This document shows, piece after piece, positions 43,848 through 59,210 of a stretch of DNA of 64,000 nucleotides. Each line of letters begins with the position of its first letter. Position 1 is the first letter of the stretch. The stretch is from Floccularia luteovirens (Eukaryota; Basidiomycota; Agaricomycetes; Agaricales; Squamanitaceae). The DNA is taken from assembly GCA_009739215.1 (NCBI GenBank), contig VSJF01000006.1, forward strand, positions 682,001 to 746,000, read 5' to 3'. The notes under the pieces are model-generated. The model saw only the letters and a program-made list of their open reading frames with translations, ran no database searches and was not told where the DNA came from. The translations under genes and the position numbers were made by a program.

Positions 43848-44931
43848 ATGGCAAGCATAGGGAGCGTATTTCTAGGTGATATCCAACGCATTCGAAATCT
43901 TTCGTCGACTCCACCATCTACACCCACTCTGTCGCGGCGACGTTCATCATCATCTCTATCTCACGTGGACCCTTTATCGCTCAAGTTATCGCCTTCATCA
44001 CATACAAACACAATGGAACAAGTGATGACGGCGGTCGCTAATACTCCCCTCCCCACTACGACAATCGACCCAAATCTTGCTCTAGAGTTGCGCATACGTT
44101 GGTTGGAGGTGATTATTTTAGGTGTTAAACAGGATGGATGGGTGAAGGACAGGAAAGGGAAGGAGCGTGAGCTCGCAAAAGTGCAGGACACAAAGCTCAA
44201 GCCTGGACAGACTCTGATACGATTAGCGGAAGAAGTTCAGCAGAAACTTAATAGTGTTGTGGAGGGGAACGAGGGGTTGACAAACTTCATGGAACATTGT
44301 ACGTTCCCATTTCTTCCTGCCCTTCTACTTCATTCGTTTCTACGCATCTTATAACATATATACCTAAAATTCTACAGACGACCAATATGCTCATCTTATC
44401 ACGCTGTCATCTTTGCCGGGCACAGAAGCTCCTGCCACCAGCATGACAGACGAGGAGTTCGACGCGCTATTGTCGGAAATGGAACCAGATATACGTGCCG
44501 CTGAAAAGGACATGCGTGAGATTGAAGCTCTGGAGAAGAAGAATATCACAGGTGCCGGAAAGCTAACAAGTACGTTTCGCAGAATAAAATATATATGCCG
44601 ACGTCCAAATGCTTATAAGTCTGTTATTCTGCAGGCTATGAAAATCTTGTACCCCGACTGAATGAGGTGGTGAAAATGCATAAAGAGAACTCAAAGCTGG
44701 TGGAATCATTGGAGCAGCAGATAGCTTTACTTGTGGATCGTCATACAATCCAGGTCAGTTTCTGATATCGAGAACTCATGTTTGGTAAATGTTTTCTAAG
44801 CATATTTTTAGGTGGACGCTCTGTCAGAGCTTTTTGTTGCATGGGACGATACGCTCACAGAAGTAGAGGACATGGTTATGCGACTTGAACGACAAAGAGA
44901 TGAGAGACGTCGACTGGGTTATGAGCCATAG
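43848..44931 (+). CDS. Dynactin subunit 3 (p22/p24)-like coiled-coil protein
   Basis: About 300 residues in four exons. After a Ser/Pro-rich start, a helical region begins LALELRIRWLEVIILG, the usual opening of the dynactin p22 family. Coiled coils follow (LIRLAEEVQQKLNSV, MEPDIRAAEKDMREIEALEKK, LNEVVKMHKENSKLVESLEQQ). The end VDALSELFVAWDDTLTEVED resembles the conserved p22 terminal helix that contains a QWD-like turn. p22 belongs to the dynactin shoulder, the adaptor complex for dynein. Assignment rests on overall helix pattern and two short motifs, so another coiled-coil protein is possible. The last 58 bp of this gene are duplicated in inverted orientation at 58227-58284. Confidence 0.55.
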
Positions 44932-45268
44932 TTAAATGTTGGATAGAGGCACCCTGGTATATTCTTATGAGCATTTCAGTTGAGAAGATTTCTTCGCATT
45001 CACATGAGTTTTGATATTAAAACTATGTATTTAATTCTAGTCTACTACGGGTATCATTCGTACAAGCTGTATTTATAATATCCCCGACAGTGCCGCACTG
45101 TGAAATCGGGTGAGATATCGTTGTATTAGAATCCCCAGGGCCAAGAATCCTGCGCGAGCGAAATGCCTAAAAGCAAGATACCGGCAGGGGCTTGCAAAAA
45201 TAGTCCCGAAAGTTGATGTCATAGGGACAATGTTCAACAATCAAATAATTTTACAGACTTGTTTTGCA

Positions 45269-47347
45269 TCATGCCTTCTCTTGTTTTACAACAGAGGTGC
45301 GAGAACGCTCAGCACGTTGTTGTTCTACCCATGCTGCAACATTGGTGGCTGCTTCTAACGGGCGAGTTTTATGGGTCATGAGATATCCTTGAAGAGCTGC
45401 CATCGAGAACTCGCGATCTGGGATAGCCTCTTTAAATTTATCAGCTAGCCTGGAAACTTGGGCAGGCGAGAGCTTGGGTGCACGTGTGCGTTGTCGCAGC
45501 AATGCAAGAGCTACAGAAGTTTCTGTTTCATTAGATGCGGATTCCTCAGTGGTGGTCGTAGTGGTAGGGAGTGGTACATCCAGGTCGATTAGGTTGGTTT
45601 CGTCAGAAGCATAACCAGAATCAGTACTTGATTTTTCAGTAACCTGAATATTTTCCGTCTTCTCATCGCTTGTATCAATGGGGAGATAAAAGCAGCAATA
45701 TAATTCCCGGGCTTGATATTTGCTTGCCAGCTTGAATTCGATATGAATATCCATGCGACCAGGACGTGTGAGGGCAGGGTCGAGAGATGTGTACTTGTTG
45801 GTTGTAGCAAACAAAATACGACCTTCTTGAGCAGCAACTCCGTCAAGGCAGTTCAGCAAACCACTTAGAGAGACTCTAGAAAATGTAAAAAGAAAAGATT
45901 AGATAAACCACGTAAATAGGAAAGTAGCTGAGACGCACCTGCTTGTGGGAGTTCCGCTTGCAGGGCCTGGTTTGTTCTCAGCTTCCTGTGTATCTCCACT
46001 GTCACGGTTAACCACTGACGAGAAAGCGGCGTCGATGTCTTCCATCAGAGCAATGCATTTTTCTGCAAAAAAGCAATGAGAGTCATGATTTGGAATATCA
46101 AATAAGAACTAACCAGGAAGCTCAAAAACCAATCGATTAAGAGTAGTATCATCCATTCCAACACGAGAGAGAGAGATGACATATACATCAAGACTCAATT
46201 CGCCAGCAAGACTGTGGATAATGCTAGTCTTTCCCGAGCCAGGAGCACCGTACTAGAGATGGAAAGGTCAGAAGTAGAGAAGTAGAGAGTGATACGAATG
46301 AGACTCACCAGAAGATATCCACGTCTGAATGGTATACCACGTTCTGCATACCAAGATTTACTACCAAGGAAATCACGAGCGTCTTCAATTATTAGATCCT
46401 TGATGCCAGGATCAAGGACAATCGATTTCAGAGGCCGTTTTTGACGGTGTGCTGCATGACGCCAATTATTGTACTGATCAGACACATATATTGAAATAGT
46501 GTTTTCGTTTGCTGCATTGTATGCCTTCTTTGCATCCACCAATAATGAATTCAAAATGTTCAAGTCACGAGAGAAAATACTAAATCATATCGTTAGCCAT
46601 GGGACAGTTAAAAATATAACAGGATGCATGCATACGTGATTTGCAGGGACTCTTCGGTCTGTGAGTCGTAGTCCATACGTTGAACCTCACGGCGTGCTCG
46701 CGTAATCCTCATGGGACGCCGTTTGTACCACAAGGTTTGTGTCGTGTGTACCGCAGGAAGATATTTCACTTTTTGGTTACCTTCGAACAAAGAACCATCT
46801 TCACTAGCCATATTGATCGCGGAGAATTGAAGGCCAAAGGTGCGTGTACTGACTTCCAAATCCCTTGCTGTTGCTGTGGGTCATAAGGGTATCAGTCCAT
46901 ACTCCATTTACAAGTGGTATATGTGCTCACTCCATGAAGCCTGCTTTGTTAACCAAACCATCATCCAGTCTGGAATTACCCTTGTGTTAATATGGCATTT
47001 TGCATGGGACAGGATAAACACCTACCATAACTGAAATCATTTTCTTCAAAGCTGGCTGTAATGAAGAAAGAATTGTATGTCTTATAGTATACATAAAAGG
47101 CCAGTCTCCGGAAGGATTCGAGGACGCTACCGAGAGCGATGAGCTTGATCCAGTCACGCAAAGCAGCAAAAGAGACGAGGAATTTGATAAGTGATGTGAT
47201 GTCTCGAGGTAATGTGGCAGGTGAGGCATTGGGAGTTCCAGCAGTTGTGGTTGACGTTGAGTTGCCACAATCTGTACTGCCTGTTGGGCCACTGAAGCCT
47301 GTGAAAGATGAAAGCAACTGTTCAACGAGCAGGAGTGGCGACGCCAT
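45269..47347 (-). CDS. BCS1-like AAA ATPase, copy A
   Basis: Member of the Bcs1 family of membrane-anchored AAA proteins; yeast Bcs1 inserts the Rieske protein into complex III, while fungal paralogues such as this have no assigned role. About 560 residues. The N-terminal Ser/Thr-rich stretch is followed by a predicted membrane/targeting segment (SLIKFLVSFAALRDWIKLIA). The Bcs1 N-domain comes next (DWMMVWLTKQASW, YLPAVHTTQTLWYKRRPMRI), then the AAA core: KSWYAERGIPFRRGYLL, Walker A YGAPGSGKTS, Walker B IALMEDIDAAF, RVSLSGLLNCLDGVAAQEGR, sensor FATTNKY and Arg finger TRPGRMD. The C-terminus has an acidic Thr-rich insert and ends VVKQEKA. Frame intact over seven or eight short introns. Mirrors copy B at 55808 with only scattered changes (for example LNRLVF versus LNQLVS). 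Confidence 0.88.
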
Positions 47348-48309
47348 GTTCCTGTGGGGATAGAATATGCAGACAATAGATCATTCATCTTGTTTTTATA
47401 GATGAATGGAGAACAAGGGTTAGGGGCGGCACCGGTAAGGGATTACGGATTTAAAAAAACACTAGCGCTCGGGTATAATCAGTCTTGACTCGAAGAGAGT
47501 CATTTAATGGGGATCTCGCTGTTTAGCGCCTTCTATGACTCCAAAGAGCGCCAGATGGCGCCAATTCATTTTGCATTAGGAACAAGGTTTTCTGGCAATT
47601 GATGTACATAGAGCTTCATTAGATGTCATCAATCATCTTTTGTGGCTCACTCATTGTATCTTCTACAGTTATGTTGGTTCTAAAATGATCGCACTTCCTA
47701 AAATCTACCTGAGGTCATGAACATATACAATGAACTCAAGTTTATTCTAAGCTGGTGATATTTTGCTTCTCACAGTTTATTACACGTTCACATTACACAA
47801 TAAGGCCGTCCTGCCCGCTACGTCTTATTGGTCGTTTAGCAAGTAAGTACTAGTTTTCGGAAGCTTTTAATTATGTGAAAAGAACATCAGAAAGGCAATG
47901 TGATGCTTCAATGCTTCAAGTCCATCGCAATTCCTTCACATGAGGTCAACACCGAAAGAAACATGGCAGACTCGAAGTCGTCATATAGCGTTTAATTTAA
48001 GAACAGCTCCGGCTGTAACTCATCTGATGAACTCGTGTCATTCACATCACAATGAGGAACAGGTTCAACACATGTGACAGAGATGTAAAGACAACAAACA
48101 CCTAGAATGATATGATTCACCAAGGAAGACTCCATCTCATCAACGTTTCAACAGTAAGGTCGGTATCAACAGCTAAGCCATGCAGTAATCTCCTTTCACG
48201 GAGACATTTCAACTTCAGTTTTTCAACGTCATCAGACAACGTAGAAATATCATAACAATTATGCAACAGTGAAGCAGATGACAGTTTTAAATGATCATCC
48301 ATGATAACT
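47348..48309. other. Spacer inside arm A, upstream of BCS1-A
   Basis: Upstream region of BCS1-A and the gap to the decayed copy. Near-identity with arm B stops at about 47519; beyond that only parts match. At about 47811 arm B carries an extra segment of roughly 0.7 kb (54647-55358). At about 48023 the match breaks off, and it resumes at 49311. Confidence 0.6.
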
Positions 48310-49684
48310 GACAAGCAAAAAATAGACGACCTTCTTGAGCTGCAACTCCGTCAATGCAGTTCAGTAGTCCACTTAGAGAGACTCTGCGAATGTAATAAAT
48401 TAAATAAATCGTTCAAATGGAAGGTAATTGATATGCACCCGCTTGTAGAAGCCCTAATAGCCCTGGTTTCCTGTACAATCTCTACTGTCACGGTTCACCG
48501 TCTGAGTGAAGGCAACGTCGATTTCTTCCACTGCATCTTGCTGCAAAAAGCAATGAGAACCACAATAAGAATAATATAAAAGAACTAACCAGGAAGTTTG
48601 GCAACCAAATCACTAAGTGTGGCATCATCCATTCCACCACGAGAGGGACAGATAATATATACATGAAGCTGCAGTTCACCAGCAAGACTGAATATTGCTA
48701 GTCTTTCCCGAGCTAGGAGCACCATACTGGAAATGCGGTGATCAGAGGAATTGGAGAAGAAACAGATGAGGACTCACCAGAAGATGTCCAGGTCGGAATG
48801 GTATGCCACGCTTTCATACCAAGATTTACTGTTGAGGAAATCGCGAGCGTCTTCAACTATTAGCTCTTTGACACCAGGATCGAGGATGATTGATTTAGAG
48901 ACCGCATTTGACAATCTCGCAATACGCCAGCTTTGCTGATCAGCTGTATATATACAGACATATTCCTGGTTTGCGATATTGTATGCCTTCTTTGCATCCA
49001 CATCAATGAATTCAAAATGCCCAAGTCACGAGATAAATACTAAAGCATATCGTTGGTCAGGGGTCAAACAGTCTACGATGTGCGTACTAGATTCTGATAT
49101 ACACCTCTTGAGTTGTATCATAAAATTCGCGTAACTGCGTAGCCTCATCCAACGTCATTTGTACCACAAGGATCGCGTCGTGTTTATTACAGGTAGATAT
49201 GACACTTGATACACACGTCCTGGGAAGGTTCATCATCATCAGGTACATTGACTGAGGAAGTTCCAATCCCATGTCTGAGTGAATAGACATCCAAGTGCCT
49301 TATTCTTTCTGCGAATCATAAGACTATCAGCTCATACCTCGTTTACAAGTGATATATGTACTCACTCCACGAAGTCTGATTCGCTAACCAACATATTATC
49401 CGATCTGGATTTAACATTACATTAATATGGATTTTGTATAGGACAATGATAAAGACCTACCATAACTGCTATCGCCTAACTCAAAAGTGGCGGTAATGAA
49501 GACATAATCATATGCTTTGTAGTTTAAACCCAGTCTCCATAAGATCTAAAGAACACTGCCGAGAACGATGGGCTTGAACCAGTCACGCAAAGCGGCGAAA
49601 GAGATGATGAATGAAGTTATATATTGCAGCAAAGAGGCATTTGCAATCGAGGTTGATGTTCTGGAACCTGAGTGGCGTCGCCAT
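48310..49684 (-). pseudogene. Decayed BCS1-like AAA gene (second copy)
   Basis: Remnant of a gene like BCS1-A. The N-terminal start region is near 49684, the post-TM exon lies around 49330-49420, and the exon with VDAKKAYN-like and GVKELIVEDARDFL sequence is at about 48780-49010. Walker-A and later exon pieces run down to about 48330, where similarity ends at the counterpart of NCLDGVAAQEGR. Frameshifts, stops and loss of the C-terminal third make it non-functional. The Walker A segment is damaged near 48690-48725 and lacks the YGAPGSG spacing. About 1.29 kb of it (48023-49311) is missing from arm B. Confidence 0.75.
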
Positions 49685-49961
49685 GTTCCTGTGGGGATAT
49701 ACAGACAGAGAGTCATCCCGTTTTTTTTTAGATGCATAAGAAAAAATAAACAGCGCTCAGTCATGAATCCATGATTTTCGAAATGATATCTTCAAAATGC
49801 CATTTGATGGACGAATTACTCACTGATAGTAATACCTCCGAATATGGGGATGTGACGTGACGAATACAAATGCAGCATGTTTGATTTTCTAAGGAGACTC
49901 AGAGTCATTCCAAACACAGCTTTCTTTTCTTCGAGTCATCACCAAAGCCACAACATTGGGG

Positions 49962-50901
49962 ATGTCAGATGGACCAAGAACTTCCCTTGACCTAACCCAC
50001 GTTCTCTGTAAGACATTCGCAACGATGGAGGGTGACAAGGAGCTGATGGGGCCAGAGTTTTATAGATGATGACTCTTCCATTTTTTCGCTGGCGTTAGCT
50101 TTAGTAACCTTGAGTCCCATCCTATTAATGGTAAGACCTCCTCTTATCCTGTACCAATGTTTCAATGCACGAATATATTGGCTAGGCATCATACGCAGCA
50201 TTAGCAGTGCAGACGCGAGAATTCCTCATCATTACCATGTGGGCAGGTCAACTCGCCGGTGAATGTATCAATTATGCATTAAAGCACCTCATTAAACAAG
50301 AACGACCAATCCGTACGTTCAAACCACATCTCTGTGACAACGTGAAGTTACAAGAAGCTTCTACTACAGAAAGTATAGGGAATGGTTTCGGATTTCCTTC
50401 ATCCCATAGCCAGTATATGGGTTACTTTTCGTCGTTTCTCATGTTTCATCTGTACTTCCGCCATAGGTTTTCGTCCACAGGATCTAACATAATCGACTCC
50501 CTTTGGCGGCTCATAATCTACACCGGCCTCATGGCGTGGGCAGGCCTGGTTGCATATTCTCGGTAATGATTCTTGTGATGTGAATACCCGACCTTTCCCT
50601 AACATTCTCAAGGTATTATTTAGGGTATCATAACGCTCATCAGATATTATGGGGTTTTGGCATAGGTGTGATGCTGGGCACCTCTCTATATACCTTTGCC
50701 GAACTTCTCCCGACACGATATCCCGAATCCCCCATAGGGAAATTTAAAGCGTTCCTGTTAGACAATCCGTTGTCACTTTGGCTTCAGATACGGGACGGTT
50801 GGGCAGTTTGGGAAGATGGTGGGCGGGCAGGTGAATGGGTGCAGTGGAGGAAGGAATGGGATAAACAACAAAAAATTGCAACTGCTAAACGGAAAAATTA
50901 G
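49962..50901 (+). CDS. CAX4: Dolichyldiphosphatase (Cax4/DOLPP1, PAP2 family)
   Basis: ER phosphatase that recycles dolichyl pyrophosphate after N-glycan transfer; about 255 residues. The first exon is MSDGPRTSLDLTHVL, then YDDDSSIFSLALALVTLSP through an intron whose acceptor is TTTATAG at about 50076. PAP2 signature: KHLIKQERP (KxxxxxxRP), GFPSSHSQYMGY (PSGH-like block), YSRYYLGYHNAHQ (SRxxxxxHxxxD-like). Four or more membrane helices. Ends with a charged tail QQKIATAKRKN. The frame is intact. The first half (49962-50438) lies inside arm A, so a broken mirror copy exists at 53283-53775; the second half is unique. Confidence 0.9.
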
Positions 50902-51039
50902 AAAATTTGTATTGGCGTTTGCAAAGATTAATGACAACAATAATTTTTTACAATCTTATCTGATCAAAGATTCCGAGTACATAATGGGCCCTTCAAAAAA
51001 AAACTCCCTATTCATCAGTTTAATATCATTTATGTATCA

Positions 51040-52222
51040 ATGACATTCCTTACAATCGGTTCTCTTGGTTCCACTTGCTTTCGTGTCTGCAGAAACATGT
51101 CGACATCTTCTCTTCCACCATCTCCATTCCCCCTTCTGACTACAGTCAAGGAGTTCAGAGAATGGCGAAGGAAAGCTTATGACGCGCGGAAGACAGTCGG
51201 TTATGTACCAACTATGGGTGCCCTACATGAGGGCCATCTCTCACTAGGTTAGCTTTCTCATTCTTCCAGTGGTCTGGTTGTACGAGAAATGAAGTTGTCT
51301 AGTACGAAAGTCCCTCAAAGAGAATGATTTGACAGTTCTCTCAATCTTCGTCAATCCGGCTCAATTTGCCCCTCATGAGGATCTAGCAACTTATCCACGT
51401 ACCCTCCCAACGGATATCCAGAGTCTCATCAACACAACTGTTTCCGTTCCGAACTCGCCTTCTCCCCGCTCCACCGATGCAGTCTTTCTACCTTCAGTAC
51501 ATGAGATGTATCCATCTGGAATCAGCCAGAATATCTCTGACCAGAAGGGAACATTCGTCGAAGTCAAAGGATATGGACACCAAATGGAGGGCGCAAGTCG
51601 TCCGACGTTCTTCCGAGGTGTAGCCACAGTCGTTACCAAACTTTTCAACGCTATAGAGGTCAGGGTTACTTATTGCAACTGTCGTTAAACACATAATGAG
51701 CAACCTCTTTAGCCCACAAACGCATATTTTGGACAAAAAGACATCCAGCAGTGCCTCCTATTGCGAAGACTCACTAGAGATCTATTATGTTCGCACCCAG
51801 ACCCGGAACACTTCCATATCGTGCCTACAGCGCGAGATCTACAAGACGGGCTCGCCCTGTCTTCCCGTAATGCCCATCTCACTCCCGAAGGTCGTCATCT
51901 TGCCCCTACTCTGATTAATGCCTTGCGTGAAGTGGAATCCGCCTGGAACGAAGGCAAGTCAAAGGCAGAGTGTATCCAAAAAGGGATAAAGATCGTCGAC
52001 AACGCTGAGGTTAATATACGTGCCTCCAATATAGACGTCAAGATCCAATTGGATTATATCCAGATGAACGATTCACAAACTTTTGAAATTATAAATGATA
52101 ATACTAGAAAAAACCCAAGTGATCCTGTCCCTATTATTCTCAGTGGGGCTCTTTGGGTTGGCAAAACCCGGTTGATTGACAATCTTATACTGGGGAATAT
52201 TAATTCAATTATCAGCACATAA
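51040..52222 (+). CDS. PAN6: Pantothenate synthetase (pantoate-beta-alanine ligase)
   Basis: Last step of vitamin B5 synthesis: ATP-dependent joining of pantoate and beta-alanine. About 355 residues in three exons. HIGH-type motif VPTMGALHEGHLSL, then LTVLSIFVNPAQFAPHEDL, GYGHQMEGASRPTFFRGVAT, KLFNAIEPTNAYFGQKDIQQ, and the KMSKS-like GLALSSRNAHL. It ends with the usual domain terminus GALWVGKTRLIDN plus a short tail. The start may be ATG 51040 (an N-terminal extension rich in Cys, Phe and Arg, possibly targeting) or 51097 (MSTSSLPP). Frame intact. The 3' end is duplicated at 58752-58990. Confidence 0.92.
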
Positions 52223-52418
52223 ATTATAGTTTGCTGTTGTTAACGTTAAAACGTTAACCTTCCACCATAGGTGGTGTATATGTAATAAAATCATGCTCAA
52301 TGTAGTCAAAATGTCAGTTTGCAAGTGATAAGAAGAAAAAAAGTTAGATTTAGATAGCAATTATTGATCAACCCTCTATGTTCTCCCCTAGATCTCTATT
52401 ATTTGCTTCTGATACCAA
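51757..52418. repeat. Direct repeat, copy 1: PAN6 3' end plus a VPS9 3' scrap
   Basis: The 3' part of PAN6, its downstream sequence and a 50 bp piece of the VPS9 gene end (52369-52418) recur at 58752-59210, shortened and diverged, in the same orientation. Matches recognised by eye: GACTCACT-type stretch at 51770, the GGCAAAACCCGGTT stretch at 52157, and CTAGATCTC-ATTATTTGC at 52389. Confidence 0.75.
52369..52418 (-). pseudogene. Scrap of VPS9-CUE gene 3' end
   Basis: Read on the minus strand it encodes LVSEANNRDLGENIEGL, matching [17 protein letters not shown] of the CUE domain encoded at 59160-59210. Too short to function; it marks a duplicated PAN6-VPS9 junction. Confidence 0.7.
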
Positions 52419-52639
52419 AGTGGTGGGACATGGGACTCAGACCAGAGGATGGAGGTCTTAACAACTACCAAACCACAATAGGCAGAGTATTTATTTACTT
52501 GAAGAACCCCCGGAAACATGGTCTCCAGTAAATATCACAGATAGCTGATAGCCAAAGATGAAATTTATTCGTTTAGTTGGCTTCTCAGGTTGGCTATGAA
52601 GAAGCACTAAAGCACGGCCAAGTAGCCTTGAAATAGAAA

Positions 52640-53282
52640 ACGCCTCATAAAAAATGTTATGTGATGGGGACAAATGATTTTACAGACTTGTCCAGCAGAG
52701 TTGCGAGCATGCTCAACAGGTTGTTGTTCCACCCATGCCATAACCTTGATGACCACTCCGAAGGAGGGTGTCTTATACAACATGAAATACCCTTGAAGGG
52801 TTGCTATCGAGAATTCGCGATCTGGATGGCCCGCTGAATTTTTCAACTAGTCTTGAATCTTGAGCAGGCGAGAGCTCGAGTACTCATGACTGTTGCAGTT
52901 GCATGACAGCAGCTATAGAGATATCTTTTTCCATGGATGGGAATTTCTCAATGGTGGCTGTAGAGATAGGAGGTGGTACATCTAGGTCGATTAGGTTGGT
53001 ATTATTAGGAGCATAATCACTTTCAGTGTCGGATTTTTCGACATTTCCTGTCTTCTGATTGCTTGTATCCATGGGAAGATGATGCAGCAATATAATTCTC
53101 GAGCTTGAATTCGATACGGAGATCCATACGACCAGGACATGTGAGAGCATGGTCGAGGGGTGCGTACTTGTTAGTCGTAGCAAACAATAGGCGACCTTCT
53201 TGAGCTGCAACTCCGTCAATGCAGTTCAGCAGTCCACCTATAGAGACTCTGCAAATGTAAAGAAAAGAATTTAAAACAGATC
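52640..53282 (-). pseudogene. C-terminal part of a third BCS1-like gene, cut off at arm B
   Basis: Minus-strand remnant matching the BCS1-A C-terminal exon: NCIDGVAAQEGR-like start near 53220, TRPGRMD-like segment near 53120, the TNLIDLDVPPP block near 52990, and an end resembling the AAWVEQQ stretch near 52730. Frameshifted and lacking parts (for example the acidic insert is shortened). It stops exactly where arm B begins (about 53283). The N-terminal piece of what seems to be the same gene reappears on the far side of arm B at 58285-58410. Confidence 0.75.
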
Positions 53283-53775
53283 GATGAAAAGTAACCCATA
53301 TACTGGCTATGGGATGAAGGAAATCCGAAACAATTCCCTATACTTTCTGTAGCAGAAACTTCTTGTTAACTTCACGTTGTCACGGAGATGTAGTTTGAAC
53401 ATACGGATTGGTCGTTCTTCGTTCTTGTTTAATGAGGTGCTTTAATGCATAATTGATACATTCACCGACGGGTTGACCTGCCCACATGGTAATGATGAGG
53501 AATTCTCGCGTCTGCACTGCTAATGCTGCGTATGATGCCTAGCCAATATATTCGTGCATTGAAACATTGGTACAGGATAAGAGGAGGTCTTACCATTAAT
53601 AGGATGGGACTCAAGGTCACTAAAGCTAACGCCAGCGAAAAAATGGAAGAGTCATCATCTATAAAACTCTGGCCCCATCAGCTCCTTGTCACCCTCCATC
53701 GCTGTGAATGTCTTACAGAGAACGTGGGTTAGGTCAAGAGAAGTTCTTGGTCCATCCGACATCCCCATGTAGTGG
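53283..53775 (-). pseudogene. Broken copy of CAX4 5' half
   Basis: Mirror of 49946-50438, including the ATG region and first intron, and reaching the SSHSQYMGY codons. It has substitutions, small indels including an ACGAAGA duplication in the QERP region, and no 3' half, so no functional phosphatase can result. Confidence 0.85.
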
Positions 53776-54033
53776 CTTTGGTGATGACTCGAAGAAAAGA
53801 AAGCTGTGTTTGGAATGGCTGAGTCTCCTTAGAAAATCAAACATGCTGCATTTGTATTCGTCACGTCACATCGATCACATATTCGGAGGTATCATTGAGT
53901 AATTCGTCCATCAAATGGCATTTTGAAAATATAATTTCGAAAATCAGGGATTCATGACTGAGCGCTGTTTATTTTTTCTTATGCATCTATAAAAAAACGG
54001 GATGACTCCCTGTCTGCATATCCCCACAGGAAC

Positions 54034-54420
54034 ATGGCGACGCCACTCAGGCTCCAGTAGCTCAACGTTCAACCTCGACTGCAAATGCCTCTTTGCCGCA
54101 AAATATAACTTCATTCATCATCTCTTTCGCCGCTTTGCGTGACTGGTTCAAGCCCATCGTTCTCGGCAGTGTTCTTTAGATCTTATGGAGACTGGGTTTA
54201 AACTACAAAGCATATGATTATGTCTTCATTACCGCCACTTTTGAGTTAGGCGATAGCATTTATGGTAGGTCTTTATCACTGTCCTATGCAAAATCCATAT
54301 TAATATAATGTTAAATCCAGACTGGATAATATGTTGGTTAGCGAATCAGGCTTCGTGGAGTGAGTACAAATATCACTTGTAAACGAAGTATGAGTTGATA
54401 GCCTTATGATTCGCAGAAAC
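54034..54420 (+). pseudogene. Truncated N-terminus of a decayed BCS1-like copy in arm B
   Basis: Mirror of the start of the decayed copy in arm A (49684 side). It encodes an ISFAALRDWFKPIVLGS-like stretch after a frame-disrupted start, then the next short exon, and ends where a 1.29 kb deletion joins it to upstream sequence at about 54430. Confidence 0.7.
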
Positions 54421-54646
54421 AATAACTCTGAGTTACAGCCGGAGCTGTTCTTAAATCAAAGCTGTACGACGGCTTCGAGTCTGCCATGTTTCTTTCGGTG
54501 TTGACCTCATGTGAAGGAATTGCGACGGACTTGAAGCATTGAAGCATCACATTGCCTTTCTGATGTTCTTTCACATCATTAAAAGCTTCAACGAAAATTG
54601 GTATTTACTTGCTAAACGATCAATTAAACGTAGCGGGCAGGACGGG

Positions 54647-55358
54647 CTTATCAGCCTTATTCCTGCTACCTTTAGGTAGGGGGTCTTACAGTTCACTAAA
54701 TTTCAGTTTTCATCAGTAAATCACTTAAAATGCAATAATCTTGTTCCTGCTCGGCAGCATTGTATTTGTATGTCTTTTCTTCATCATTTTCCATACAACG
54801 GGTGAGTTTCGGTTCCTTCTCACTCATCTTCCTCTTTTTTGATGTTCTATACAAAGTTCTGCGTCATAAACCAAAGCTGTATGTAGTATTCCACTGCGAT
54901 TCATGATGATGATGTTTATTGGGTTTTTTGGAACAGATGATATGGTTAACTTTGATGATTTGTCGATGACGTTGCGAAACTTTTCCAAAAATGAGAAAAG
55001 ATGAATATCAAATAAACATGTTATTAGAAATGTTGCTGAGCGTCATGGCTTAACTTTTCTGAGGACATCCAGTACCAGTCTTATGAAATCCGTTGACAAA
55101 CCAAAATAACCGATGAAAACAGCTGCAATCATGACATCAAATACATGTCGAAAATAATGTACATCATCACCACAGTAACCACATACATACAATTCATAGC
55201 ACGAAAATAATACCCTCCAAGACACCAACAAAGACCGTTGGGATCAACCAATGTAACTTACCACAAGTAGTGCTACCCCAGTATACATCGCAGCCCAACC
55301 GAAACCCCAGAAAATAACCCGTCGGTAGGGGGCACTGCCCTGCACTGCAGTGCAGAAA
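54647..55358. mobile_element. 0.7 kb segment present only in arm B, possible insertion
   Basis: Arm A passes straight from AAGGCCGTCC to TGCCCGCTACG at 47803-47822, while arm B carries about 0.7 kb at this point. The flanks show imperfect direct repeats (ATAAGGCCGTCC and ATAAGCCCGTCC, minus strand). Both ends carry GGTAGGGGG, one end has the palindrome CTGCACTGCAGTGCAG (55339-55354) and the other a CTACCTAAAGGTAG hairpin. Inside, minus-strand frames encode hydrophobic stretches (KLHWLIPTVFVGVLEGIIF; DVMIAAVFIGYFG) that resemble a decayed membrane protein. No transposase seen. It could equally be a deletion from arm A. Confidence 0.4.
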
Positions 55359-55807
55359 GGACGGCCTTATGGGATTATTATATAATGTGAACGTGTAATA
55401 AACTTTGAGAAGCAAAATATGACAGCACTTAATATCACCAGCTCAAGATGGATTCATTGTATGCATTCATGAACCTCAGTTAGATTTACGATTGAAGTGA
55501 ATTTGTATTCGCCGAAAAAAGATGAACATGCTTTTAGAACCAACATGATTGTAGAAGATACACTGAGTGAATGATTGATGACATCTAATGAAGCTCTATA
55601 TATTACTTCCTGATATTAATATCTGGCGCTCAACGGCGAGATCCCCATTAAATGACTCTCTTCGAGTCAAGACTGATTATACCCGAGCGCTAGTGTTTTT
55701 TTAAATCCGTAATCCCTTACCGGTGCCGCCCCTAACCCTTGTTCTCCATTCATCTATAAAAACAAGATGAATGATCTATTGTCTGCATATTCTATCCCCA
55801 CAGGAAC

Positions 55808-57889
55808 ATGGCGTCGCCACTCCTGCTCGTTGAACAGTTGCTTTCATCTTTCACAGGCTTCAGTGGCCCAACAGGCAGTACGGATTGTGGCAACTCAACG
55901 TCAACCACAACTGCTGGAACTCCCAATGCCTCACCTACCACATTACCTCGAGACATCACATCACTTATCAAATTCCTCGTCTCTTTTGCTGCTTTGCGTG
56001 ACTGGATCAAGCTCATCGCTCTCGGTAGCGTCCTCGAATCCTTCCGGAGACTGGCCTTTTATGTATACTATAAGACATACAATTCTTTCTTCATTACAGC
56101 CAGCTTTGAAGAAAATGATTTCAGTTATGGTAGGTGTTTATCCTGTCCCATGCAAAATGCCATATTAACACAAGGGTAATTCCAGACTGGATGATGGTTT
56201 GGTTAACAAAGCAGGCTTCATGGAGTGAGCACATATACCACTTGTAAATGGAGTATGGACTGATACCCTTATGACCCACAGCAACAGCAAGGGATTTGGA
56301 AGTCAGTACACGCACCTTTGGCCTTCAATTCTCCGCGATCAATATGGCTAGTGAAGATGGTTCTTTGTTCGAAGGTAACCAAAAAGTGAAATATCTTCCT
56401 GCGGTACACACGACACAAACCTTGTGGTACAAACGGCGTCCCATGAGGATTACGCGAGCACGCCGTGAGGTTCAACGTATGGACTACGACTCACAGACCG
56501 AAGAGTCCCTGCAAATCACGTATGCATGCATCCTGTTATATTGTTAACTGTCCCATTACTAACAATATGATTTAGTATTTTCTCTCGTGACTTGAACATT
56601 TTGAATTCATTATTGGTGGATGCAAAGAAGGCATATAATGCAGCAAACGAAAACACTATTTCAATATATGTGTCTGATCAGTACAATGATTGGCGTCATG
56701 CAGCACACCGTCAAAAACGGCCTCTGAAATCGATTGTCCTTGATCCTGGCATCAAGGATCTAATAATTGAAGACGCTCGTGATTTCCTTGGCAGTAAATC
56801 TTGGTATGCAGAACGTGGTATACCATTCAGACGTGGATATCTTCTGGTGAGTCTCATTCGTATCACTCTCTACTTCTCTACTTCTTCTGACCTTTCCGTC
56901 TCTAGTACGGTGCTCCTGGCTCGGGAAAGACTAGCATTATCCACAGTCTTGCTAGCGAATTGAGTCTTGATGTATATGTCATCTCTCTCTCTCGTATTGG
57001 AATGGATGATACTACTCTTAATCAATTGGTTTCTGAGCTTCCTGGTTAGTTCTTATTTGATATTCCAAATCATGACTCTCATTGCTTTTTTGCAGAAAAA
57101 TGCATTGCTCTGATGGAAGACATCGACGCCGCTTTCTCGTCAGTGGTTAACCGTGACAGTGGAGATACACAGGAAGCTGAGAACAAACCAGGCCCTGCAA
57201 GCGGAACTCCCACAAGCAGGTGCGTCTCAGCTACTTTCCTATTTACGTGGTTTATCTAATCTTTTCTTTTTACATTTTCTAGAGTCTCTCTAAGTGGTTT
57301 GCTGAACTGCCTTGACGGAGTTGCTGCTCAAGAAGGTCGTATTTTGTTTGCTACAACCAACAAGTACACATCTCTCGACCCTGCCCTCACACGTCCTGGT
57401 CGCATGGATATTCATATCGAATTCAAGCTGGCAAGCAAATATCAAGCCCGGGAATTATATTGCTGCTTTTATCTCCCCATTGATACAAGCGATGAGAAGA
57501 CGGAAAATATTCAGGTTACTGAAAAATCAAGTACTGATTCTGGTTATGCTTCTGACGAAACCAACCTAATCGACCTGGATGTACCACTCCCTACCACTAC
57601 GACCACCACTGAGGAATCCGCATCTAATGAAACAGAAACTTCTGTAGCTCTTGCATTGCTGCGACAACGCACACGTGCACCCAAGCTCTCGCCTGCCCAA
57701 GTTTCCAGGCTAGCTGATAAATTTAAAGAGGCTATCCCAGATCGCGAGTTCTCGATGGCAGCTCTTCAAGGATATCTCATGACCCATAAAACTCGCCCGT
57801 TAGAAGCAGCCACCAATGTTGCAGCATGGGTAGAACAACAACGTGCTGAGCGTTCTCGCACCTCTGTTGTAAAACAAGAGAAGGCATGA
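55808..57889 (+). CDS. BCS1-like AAA ATPase, copy B
   Basis: Inverted twin of copy A with the same exon layout. The 196 residues encoded by the last exon (57299-57889) are identical in the two copies. Differences noticed: SPTTL for SPATL near residue 43, NDW for NNW in the N-domain, ASEL for AGEL after Walker A, RIGMDD for RVGMDD, LNQLVS for LNRLVF, and a 3 bp insertion in the intron at about 56880. Walker A YGAPGSGKTS, Walker B LMEDIDAAF and the Arg-finger region are intact, so both copies could be active. Role of the paralogue is unknown. Confidence 0.87.
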
Positions 57890-58226
57890 TGCAAAACAAG
57901 TCTGTAAAATTATTTGATTGTTGAACATTGTCCCTATGACATCAACTTTCGGGACTATTTTTGCAAGCCCCTGCCGGTATCTTGCTTTTAGGCATTTCGC
58001 TCGCGCAGGATTCTTGGCCCTGGGGATTCTAATACAACGATATCTCACCCGATTTCACAGTGCGGCACTGTCGGGGATATTATAAATACAGCTTGTACGA
58101 ATGATACCCGTAGTAGACTAGAATTAAATACATAGTTTTAATATCAAAACTCATGTGAATGCGAAGAAATCTTCTCAACTGAAATGCTCATAAGAATATA
58201 CCAGGGTGCCTCTATCCAACATTTAA
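57890..58226. other. 3' flank of BCS1-B, mirror of the DCTN3-BCS1-A spacer
   Basis: Sequence between the BCS1-B stop and the duplicated DCTN3 end. Mirror-identical or nearly so to 44932-45268. Both copies include the short inverted repeat CAGTGCCGCACTG (45089-45101 in arm A), which could form a terminator-like hairpin. Confidence 0.6.
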
Positions 58227-58284
58227 CTATGGCTCATAACCCAGTCGACGTCTCTCATCTCTTTGTCGTTCAAGTCGCATAACC
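58227..58284 (-). pseudogene. Duplicated last 58 bp of the DCTN3-like gene
   Basis: Encodes the terminal RLERQRDERRRLGYEP and TAG in mirror orientation to 44874-44931. It defines the outer edge of the duplicated block and shows that the duplication was copied from the arm A side, since only there is the gene complete. Confidence 0.85.
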
Positions 58285-58410
58285 TAGATGCTGGATGCTC
58301 AGAAGCCACACTGGCAGTCCCAATCATATTGCCTGTTTGGCTTCTGGTGCTTGTGAAAGCTAATAGCAACTGTTCAACGAGTAGGAGTGGTTCGCTTTAT
58401 TCCTGTGGGA
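58285..58410 (-). pseudogene. N-terminal scrap of the third BCS1-like gene
   Basis: Minus-strand sequence matching the BCS1-A start: CCTGTGGG(A) leader, LLLVEQLL-type codons and the following Thr/Ser region. The ATG is lost. It lies directly outside arm B and points toward the C-terminal piece at 52640-53282. Confidence 0.65.
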
Positions 58411-58751
58411 AGAAGATATGCAGACAACAGATCATTCATCTCGTTTTTACATTGTTCCGTTGCTTGAAAAGAGTTTGAAGAAAAAACAACCTCCACTCGC
58501 ATAGGCCGTCCTCAAATGAGATTTCTAAAATGTTATTCGATGGACCAGATCACGAATCAACGTAGCTTCGTGCATAAGTACTCTCGAACAGAGAGGTGTT
58601 ATAACTGGCACACTCCGTGGTTCAAAAGAGTGCCTGTAATTTCGCTTCAGGAACAAGGTTGTGGCTGCGTTGCCTTCAACAAATGGAAGTCTGGGGAAAC
58701 AAAAATATCAGGCACTCAGAAGGTGCAGTTACTTACGTTTGACATTTTCTC
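58411..58751. other. Spacer with no recognised gene
   Basis: Sequence upstream of the third BCS1 scrap, reaching the duplicated PAN6 piece. The open frame at 58516-58785 shows no family resemblance. Confidence 0.4.
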
Positions 58752-59210
58752 ATTAAGGAGACTCACTGAAATTATATCACACTGACATCGCGCTTACAGC
58801 GCGAGTTCCACAAGACAGATCCGCTCTGTCTATAGATGATAATACTAGAAGGAACAGAAGTGAGTCTATCACTGTTATTATCCTCAATGGGGCTGTGGGA
58901 GTTGACAAAACCCGGTTCATTGGCAATCTTGTACTGGGGAACATTAATCAGCACATAGAATATAGTTTACTGTTATTAACCTTCCATCGTTAATGGTGTA
59001 TATACAATAACCATACTTGACGTGGTAGAAATGCGGAATTGCAACCAAATTCGTGTCTAACCTTGCAGTTTCGTTTCGTGAAAATCATGGTCATAGTCCT
59101 TAAGGAAAAAAAGCGGATTCGGATAATTCCACAAACTAGGATCCACTACTCATCTCCAACAAGCCCTCTATGCTCTTCCCTAGATCTCCATTATTTGCCT
59201 CTAATACCAA
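58752..59210. repeat. Direct repeat, copy 2: decayed PAN6 3' end joined to the real VPS9 3' end
   Basis: 58752-58990 resembles PAN6 3' codons and trailer with an internal deletion (from the CGAGATCTACAAGACGG counterpart straight to the GATAATACTAG counterpart). From about 59136 it runs into the true 3' end of VPS9. The matching copy lies at 51757-52418. Confidence 0.75.

What the first reader, a model, noticed from the sequence alone, without database searches (positions are those of the whole stretch)
44874..58284. Large inverted duplication carrying twin BCS1-like AAA ATPases
Two arms of 5.6 and 5.0 kb face each other across a 2.8 kb unique spacer. Each carries an intact BCS1-like gene plus decayed relatives. 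The outer pairing is exact to a constant sum of coordinates (103158). Nuclear palindromes of this size around an expanded AAA family are unusual. They could be a source of copy number change or chromosome breakage, or a device that keeps paralogues alike.
Basis: partly seen in the sequence, partly recalled or inferred. Interest (0 to 1): 0.78.

Follow-up and report, generated by a model that had tools for sequence, protein, structure and literature searches.

The report
Inverted gene duplication in a mushroom
A stretch of what is probably a mushroom chromosome was copied backwards a few thousand bases downstream, apparently into a related gene, leaving two facing copies of one ATPase gene that seem to have partly overwritten each other; the structure looks real, but the processes behind it are familiar.

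Summary
Arms 44874-50434 and 53282-58284 face each other across 2.85 kb. Each carries an open seven-exon BCS1-like gene (579 codons; six residues differ) plus decayed BCS1 relatives.

The host is agaric-like. The copied unit is BCS1-like – dolichyldiphosphatase (CAX4) – panC, a neighbourhood kept in several other mushrooms. This gives direction: left arm and spacer are the original. The right arm is an inverted copy that ends inside CAX4 exon 4 and lies between two ends of what was apparently a third BCS1 gene ("D"). Later it lost 1.28 kb and gained a 0.72 kb dispersed repeat.

Arm divergence is a mosaic: outer 1251 bp no differences, then 488 bp with 2.5% substitutions, then 605 bp with none, inner arm 4-6%. 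This fits gene conversion over the BCS1 gene after one older duplication.

Nothing shows that conversion keeps both genes good: right-arm residue 307 is Ser where 120 of 120 aligned relatives have Gly; left-arm residue 333 is Phe, seen in none of the 120. Only three other BCS1-like loci and one partial match were found elsewhere (capped searches). Gene-bearing inverted repeats are described in Candida albicans. Ordinary, well-resolved segmental duplication; no reads were available.

The parts
44874..50434 (.). Left arm (original): BCS1-A (-), BCS1-B pseudogene (-), 5' half of CAX4 (+)
   Evidence: Self-alignment; continuous with an open CAX4 and panC
53282..58284 (.). Right arm (inverted copy): truncated CAX4 5' half (-), 5' remnant of B (+), dispersed-repeat insert, BCS1-A copy (+)
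50435..53281 (.). Spacer, found once apart from fragments: CAX4 3' part, panC, 3' end of BCS1 'D'
45269..47347 (-). BCS1-like gene A, left copy; 7 exons, 579 aa; residue 333 Phe
55808..57889 (+). BCS1-like gene A, right copy; 7 exons, 579 aa; residue 307 Ser where 120 of 120 aligned relatives have Gly
44874..46124 (.). Tract 1, identical between arms (1251 bp; partner 57034-58284); spans part of exon 5, exons 6-7, two introns and 3' flank
46125..46612 (.). Diverged patch: 12 substitutions and one 3-bp indel (partner 56543-57033)
46613..47217 (.). Tract 2, identical (605 bp; partner 55938-56542)
48314..49684 (-). BCS1-B pseudogene, broken frames, exon 7 cut short; only its 5' part survives in the right arm (about 54034-54421, +)
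48023..49299 (.). Segment absent from the right arm (read as a deletion there)
54652..55374 (.). Dispersed repeat inserted in the right arm; flanked by ATAAG[G/C]CCGTCCT (12 of 13 alike); left arm is the empty site
49962..50901 (+). CAX4-like dolichyldiphosphatase (PAP2), 5 exons, 236 aa, open; exons 1-3 and part of exon 4 lie in the arm
53282..53762 (-). Truncated CAX4 copy (limits approximate), cut in exon 4 and decayed
51097..52222 (+). panC, pantoate-beta-alanine ligase, open, 338 aa
52671..53281 (-). 3' part of a BCS1 gene, called D (end of intron 6, exon 7, 3' flank); its first 82 bp are 93% identical to B
58327..58449 (-). 5' part of a BCS1 gene, taken as D (promoter-proximal and exon 1 start, start codon lost)
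58787..59210 (+). Three remnants matching the panC 3' part and the sequence below it: trace of an older duplication of the unit

Best explanation
This is an inverted segmental duplication, most likely made by templated repair, followed by decay and gene conversion. (1) An older tandem duplication of the unit BCS1-like - CAX4 - panC left a BCS1 gene, D, and panC remnants to the right of panC (inferred from fragments at 74-89% identity in the same order). (2) A break in D was repaired by copying about 5.5 kb of the upstream neighbourhood in reverse: CAX4 5' half, B, A. This is repair of the fold-back or template-switch type, with the 2.85 kb spacer as the loop. It joined D intron 6 to CAX4 exon 4 on one side and the 3' flank of A to D exon 1 on the other, and D's middle was lost. 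That the right arm is the copy is shown; the repair route and the single gene D are inferred. (3) The right arm then lost 1.28 kb and took a dispersed repeat, and its CAX4 and B copies decayed. (4) Ectopic gene conversion between the facing arms re-homogenised two tracts covering most of BCS1-A and its 3' flank; the patch between them and the inner arms kept their older divergence (inferred from the mosaic).
For: Polarity: CAX4 is whole and open in left arm plus spacer and cut in the right arm. Several relatives keep BCS1-like, CAX4 and panC together: consecutive locus tags in Asterophora (DXG03_007780/007779/007778) and Hohenbuehelia (HGRIS_005052/005053/005054), near-consecutive in Galerina (241190/241192/241193) and Tephrocybe (010207/010203/010202). 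Target: BCS1 fragments of the same strand and in the right order lie next to both ends of the right arm; panC remnants and a weak upstream match (E=0.04) lie beyond. Later changes: repeat relatives on six other contigs and flanking duplication. Conversion: 0 of 1251 substitutions in tract 1 against 12 of 488 in the next patch (Fisher P=2e-7) and 56 of 1331 in the inner arm (P=4e-17). With 15 differences scattered at random, the longest clean run has P=0.001 and the two longest together P=2.5e-5. Tract 1 includes two introns and 3' flank, so selection on the protein does not explain it. Of the 12 patch substitutions, B matches the left arm at 6, the right at 4 and has no letter at 2, so B is not a uniform donor.
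Against: No reads, no second strain and no relative's DNA of this locus were examined. No microhomology is established: the identical block simply begins at the outer edge, and at the inner edge it runs out as TTTTC, one mismatch, TCG, so fold-back cannot be told from other template switching or end joining. The two D fragments may not come from one gene: the first 82 bp of the 3' fragment are 93% identical to B but 86% to A, while the fragment as a whole is closest to A. Identical tracts could in part come from assembly polishing. The tract borders were chosen after seeing the data.
Confidence: 0.73

Rival explanations
1. Two-step duplication without conversion: the inner part was copied inverted first, and the BCS1-A part was copied again recently, giving the higher identity.
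For: Identity is much higher in the A part than in the inner part.
Against: The parts are collinear at one place; within the A part itself clean, 2.5% and clean segments alternate, which one recent copying event would not give.
Confidence: 0.1
2. Assembly artefact: two haplotypes of a dikaryon, or a chimeric read, joined head to head.
For: Divergence of a few per cent would fit allelic copies; no reads were examined.
Against: The arms have different outer flanks, the right arm ends inside CAX4 and lies beside BCS1 fragments, it holds a repeat insertion and a deletion, and no second copy of the CAX4-panC spacer was found in the assembly.
Confidence: 0.06
3. Selected device: the palindrome is kept because facing copies convert each other and so maintain two working BCS1-like genes.
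For: Both copies are open; clean tracts cover most of the gene; palindromes on mammalian sex chromosomes are said to be maintained by arm-to-arm conversion (PMC6790999, start of abstract in a search listing).
Against: Each copy has an unusual residue in the unconverted patch; 6 of 9 exon differences alter the protein; the region upstream of the gene is the most diverged (206 per kb).
Confidence: 0.08

Closest known systems
Long gene-bearing inverted repeats of Candida albicans (PMC6591007; abstract and passages seen)
   Same: Inverted copies of kilobases with whole genes and a spacer of kilobases (one example there: copies of about 3.2 kb, 99.5% identical, about 11.3 kb apart, four ORFs each).
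   Different: Those are tied to copy-number change, loss of heterozygosity and inversion seen in isolates; here only one assembly, with mosaic identity.
Inverted duplications with a normal-copy spacer formed by fold-back (PMC3907307; abstract and passages seen)
   Same: Inverted copy separated from its source by a single-copy spacer of kilobases.
   Different: Those human cases adjoin terminal deletions, translocations or rings and show 2-8 bp inverted microhomology at 13 sequenced junctions; this one is interstitial and its microhomology is not established.
Ectopic gene conversion in Aspergillus (PMC12844118; abstract and outline seen)
   Same: Fungal paralogues in one region with conversion and decay of copies.
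   Different: Another phylum (recalled) and other genes; orientation of the copies there was not checked.
Mitochondrial chaperone BCS1 (PDB 6sh3, 6uko, 6ukp; that 6sh3 is the yeast protein is recalled)
   Same: BCS1_N, AAA and BCS1 lid domains; residues 69-441 match 6ukp.
   Different: A better candidate for the true BCS1 lies on C16 near 775 kb: 219 bits for a 194-aa piece to 6sh3 against 131 bits for a 175-aa piece of A covering most of the same part. A is a BCS1-like paralogue.

Membership tests
BCS1-like AAA ATPase | BCS1_N domain | tested here: met
   PF08740 E=3.8e-41, full profile 1-182 (right-arm copy)
BCS1-like AAA ATPase | AAA domain with Walker motifs, and BCS1 lid | tested here: met
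   PF00004 E=1.5e-18; PF25426 E=8.2e-14; GAPGSGKT at 292, EDIDAA at 344 (motif names recalled)
Canonical BCS1 | Best match of the genome to solved BCS1 structures | tested here: not met
   The C16 775 kb locus scores higher over a largely shared part
Canonical BCS1 | Mitochondrial inner-membrane location and work on the Rieske protein (recalled) | not testable with these tools
   Needs experiment
Conversion-maintained palindrome | Near-identity of the arms over their length | tested here: not met
   Near-identity only in the outer 2.65 kb; inner arm 4-6% diverged
Conversion-maintained palindrome | Homogenised tracts bounded by diverged sequence | tested here: met
   0/1251, 12/488 and 2/907 substitutions in consecutive segments, the last with a clean run of 605 bp
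Conversion-maintained palindrome | Ongoing conversion among individuals | not testable with these tools
   One genome only
Fold-back inverted duplication | Single-copy spacer between the copies | tested here: met
   spacer found once apart from fragments (best candidates only)
Fold-back inverted duplication | Inverted microhomology at the spacer junction | tested here: inconclusive
   TTTTC, one mismatch, TCG where the block ends; ancestral sequence unknown, no random-junction control run
Fold-back inverted duplication | Adjacent terminal deletion, translocation or ring | tested here: not met
   Interstitial, about 0.7 Mb inside a 2.0 Mb contig

The most novel reading that the evidence does not exclude
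The facing arms are an active exchange system. Conversion is tolerated only over BCS1-A, because conversion or crossover in the inner arm would bring decayed sequence into CAX4; so selection on CAX4 sets where the arms may exchange. The part between the A copies may be inverted in some strains, and the two copies swap arm-specific residues (307, 333).
Probability: 0.12. Interest if true: 0.5.

Novelty: new member of a known kind. Interest (0 to 1): 0.27.

Why it matters
It is a clear single-locus record of how a backward copy forms next to conserved genes, decays, and seems to be partly rewritten by its source. Polarity is fixed by a truncated neighbour gene and by gene order kept in several relatives. 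It warns that near-identity of two facing paralogues need not mean recent duplication. If strains can be compared, it would allow a test of whether a conserved gene inside one arm limits where arms convert.

Tried and rejected
Conversion from pseudogene B into one arm as the cause of the diverged patch: not supported, since B-like states are split 6 and 4 between the arms. Substitution type as a sign of directed mutation of repeats: transitions exceed transversions (inner arm 32:12, short block 10:2, A block 12:2), 8, 2 and 4 of them in CpG-type context; no expected value was computed and nothing is concluded. The left-only 48023-48313 stretch: no other match found in the genome; identity unknown. 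A fragment below panC that first looked like a stray P-loop gene is the end of panC. A 2-bp GG microhomology at the outer junction, which I noted in the notebook, is withdrawn: GG is part of the identical block. Papers: BCS1 expansion in mushrooms, none held all terms; 'BCS1-like' with 'fungi' gave three, none on expansion by listing; BCS1, microsynteny, Agaricomycetes (two of three terms) gave eight, none on this neighbourhood by listing. Shared contigs show the same contig, not adjacency.

Full report
The window is 682001-746000 of contig C19 (2.0 Mb) in a 27.0 Mb, 22-contig assembly. Its BCS1-like protein is closest to agarics (58% to Galerina, 59% to Cyathus), and its CAX4 is 75% identical to that of Crucibulum, so it is most likely an Agaricales mushroom (inference). 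The gene symbols CAX4 and panC are recalled; the listings call them dolichyldiphosphatase and pantoate-beta-alanine ligase.

Observation. Self-alignment finds three collinear inverted blocks of 95.1, 92.4 and 94.1% identity, making arms 44874-50434 and 53282-58284. The outer sum of coordinates is 103158 until a 3-bp indel near 46269, then 103155. The outer edge is sharp, at 44874/58284. DNA searches of the genome found no other copy of the outer arm, or of 49300-53300, apart from pieces within this locus; such searches score only the best candidates.

Genes. Each arm holds a BCS1-like gene A with seven exons and 579 codons, open in both by a hand-made splice model, with BCS1_N, AAA and BCS1 lid domains. 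It is not the best candidate for the canonical BCS1: a 194-aa piece of the C16 775 kb locus scores 219 bits to 6sh3, against 131 bits for a 175-aa piece of A that covers most of the same part. Other BCS1-like loci found are C14 near 3130 kb, C16 near 775 kb and C19 near 1590 kb, with a partial match on C16 near 393 kb. Further weak matches look like general AAA proteins. B (48314-49684, -) is a broken gene. Left arm and spacer hold an open CAX4 (49962-50901, +; PAP2, E=9.1e-13) and an open panC (51097-52222, +).

Polarity. CAX4 runs from the left arm into the spacer. The right arm has only its first exons, in reverse, cut in exon 4 and decayed. In several mushrooms BCS1-like, CAX4 and panC are neighbours: locus tags are consecutive in Asterophora and Hohenbuehelia and close in Galerina and Tephrocybe. 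Of distinct contig lengths of 5 kb or more (106, 100 and 109 in three listings of 120 hits each), 26 are shared by the BCS1 and CAX4 listings, 33 by BCS1 and panC, and 16 by all three. Contig sharing alone does not show adjacency. Against a universal arrangement: Flammula alnicola has the three on three contigs; Amanita inopinata and Mycena sp. CBHHK59/15 have the listed BCS1-like apart from CAX4 and panC, and so has Gymnopilus junonius; Psilocybe cyanescens has panC apart and the other two 21 tags apart. Some of these contigs are short, so fragmentation may play a part. The left arm is therefore taken as the original.

Target. A BCS1 fragment with the end of intron 6, exon 7 and 3' flank (52671-53281, -) touches the inner end of the right arm. 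A fragment with the start of exon 1 (58327-58449, -) begins 43 bases beyond its outer end. Same strand and order suggest one gene D split by the copy, with about 1.4 kb missing (inference). Against it: the first 82 bp of the 3' fragment are 93% identical to B and 86% to A, so part of it may have another history; as a whole it matches A best (232 bits against 167 for the next protein). Remnants matching panC and its downstream at 58787-59210 and a weak match (E=0.04) of the B-CAX4 intergenic region at 58514-58545 suggest that D belonged to an older tandem copy of the unit.

Later changes. The right arm lacks 48023-49299 and has an extra 54652-55374. The extra piece has relatives on C16, C17, C3, C14, C21 and C8 (69-95% over their matched parts) and lies between 13-bp sequences alike at 12 positions, one copy of which is in the empty left site. 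It therefore inserted after the duplication.

Mosaic identity. Substitutions between the arms are: 44874-46124, 0 of 1251; 46125-46612, 12 of 488 plus a 3-bp indel; 46613-47519, 2 of 907; upstream 47520-47799, 45 of 218 with 7 gaps; 47804-48022, 12 of 210; inner arm, 44 of 1121. With 15 difference events scattered at random in the 2646 bp of the A block, a clean run as long as 1251 has P=0.001, and the two longest together P=2.5e-5. Tract 1 includes two introns and 3' flank. Ectopic gene conversion is the simplest reading; the borders were chosen after seeing the data, so the Fisher values are descriptive. The upstream part is more diverged than the inner arm and aligns poorly; I have no explanation beyond local rearrangement.

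Are the twins kept good? The copies differ at six residues, from nine exon differences. At position 307, 120 of 120 aligned relatives have Gly; the left copy has Gly, the right Ser. At 333, relatives have Ser (73), Asn (38), Ala (7), Thr (1) or Cys (1); the right copy has Ser, the left Phe. Numbers are small, but nothing here shows that conversion keeps both copies fit.

Mechanism. An inverted copy separated from its source by a single-copy spacer is what fold-back repair gives (PMC3907307, abstract and passages). Those cases adjoin terminal deletions, translocations or rings; here a second junction returns to the local sequence. Junction microhomology is not established. Templated inverted duplications at breaks in yeast (PMC11724301, start of abstract in a listing) are far shorter. 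The route is inferred.

Compared with what is known. Inverted repeats with whole genes are reported in Candida albicans, for instance copies of about 3.2 kb at 99.5% identity about 11.3 kb apart (PMC6591007, passages). Ectopic conversion among fungal paralogues of one region is reported in Aspergillus (PMC12844118, abstract). This locus is a new example of known processes.

Limits.

Noticed in passing
window 44874-52222: BCS1-like - CAX4 (dolichyldiphosphatase) - panC is a gene neighbourhood kept in several mushrooms (consecutive locus tags in Asterophora and Hohenbuehelia; 16 contigs shared by all three listings). One search found no paper on it.
   Followed up: partly
window 54652-55374: Dispersed repeat of about 0.72 kb with relatives on six other contigs at 69-95% identity; class not determined.
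   Followed up: partly
window 48023-48313: Left-only stretch downstream of the broken B gene with no other match found in the genome; one frame is open for about 50 codons.
   Followed up: partly
window 47520-47799 with 55379-55635: The region upstream of the two A copies is far more diverged (206 substitutions per kb) than the other paired parts, starting about 170 bp before the start codon.
   Followed up: partly
window 53179-53260 with 48314-48395: 82 bp at the start of exon 7 of the D fragment are 93% identical to pseudogene B although the rest of the fragment is closer to A.
   Followed up: partly
listing: Amanita inopinata has two BCS1-like genes with consecutive tags (AX17_001767, AX17_001768): local BCS1 pairs elsewhere too.
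   Followed up: no
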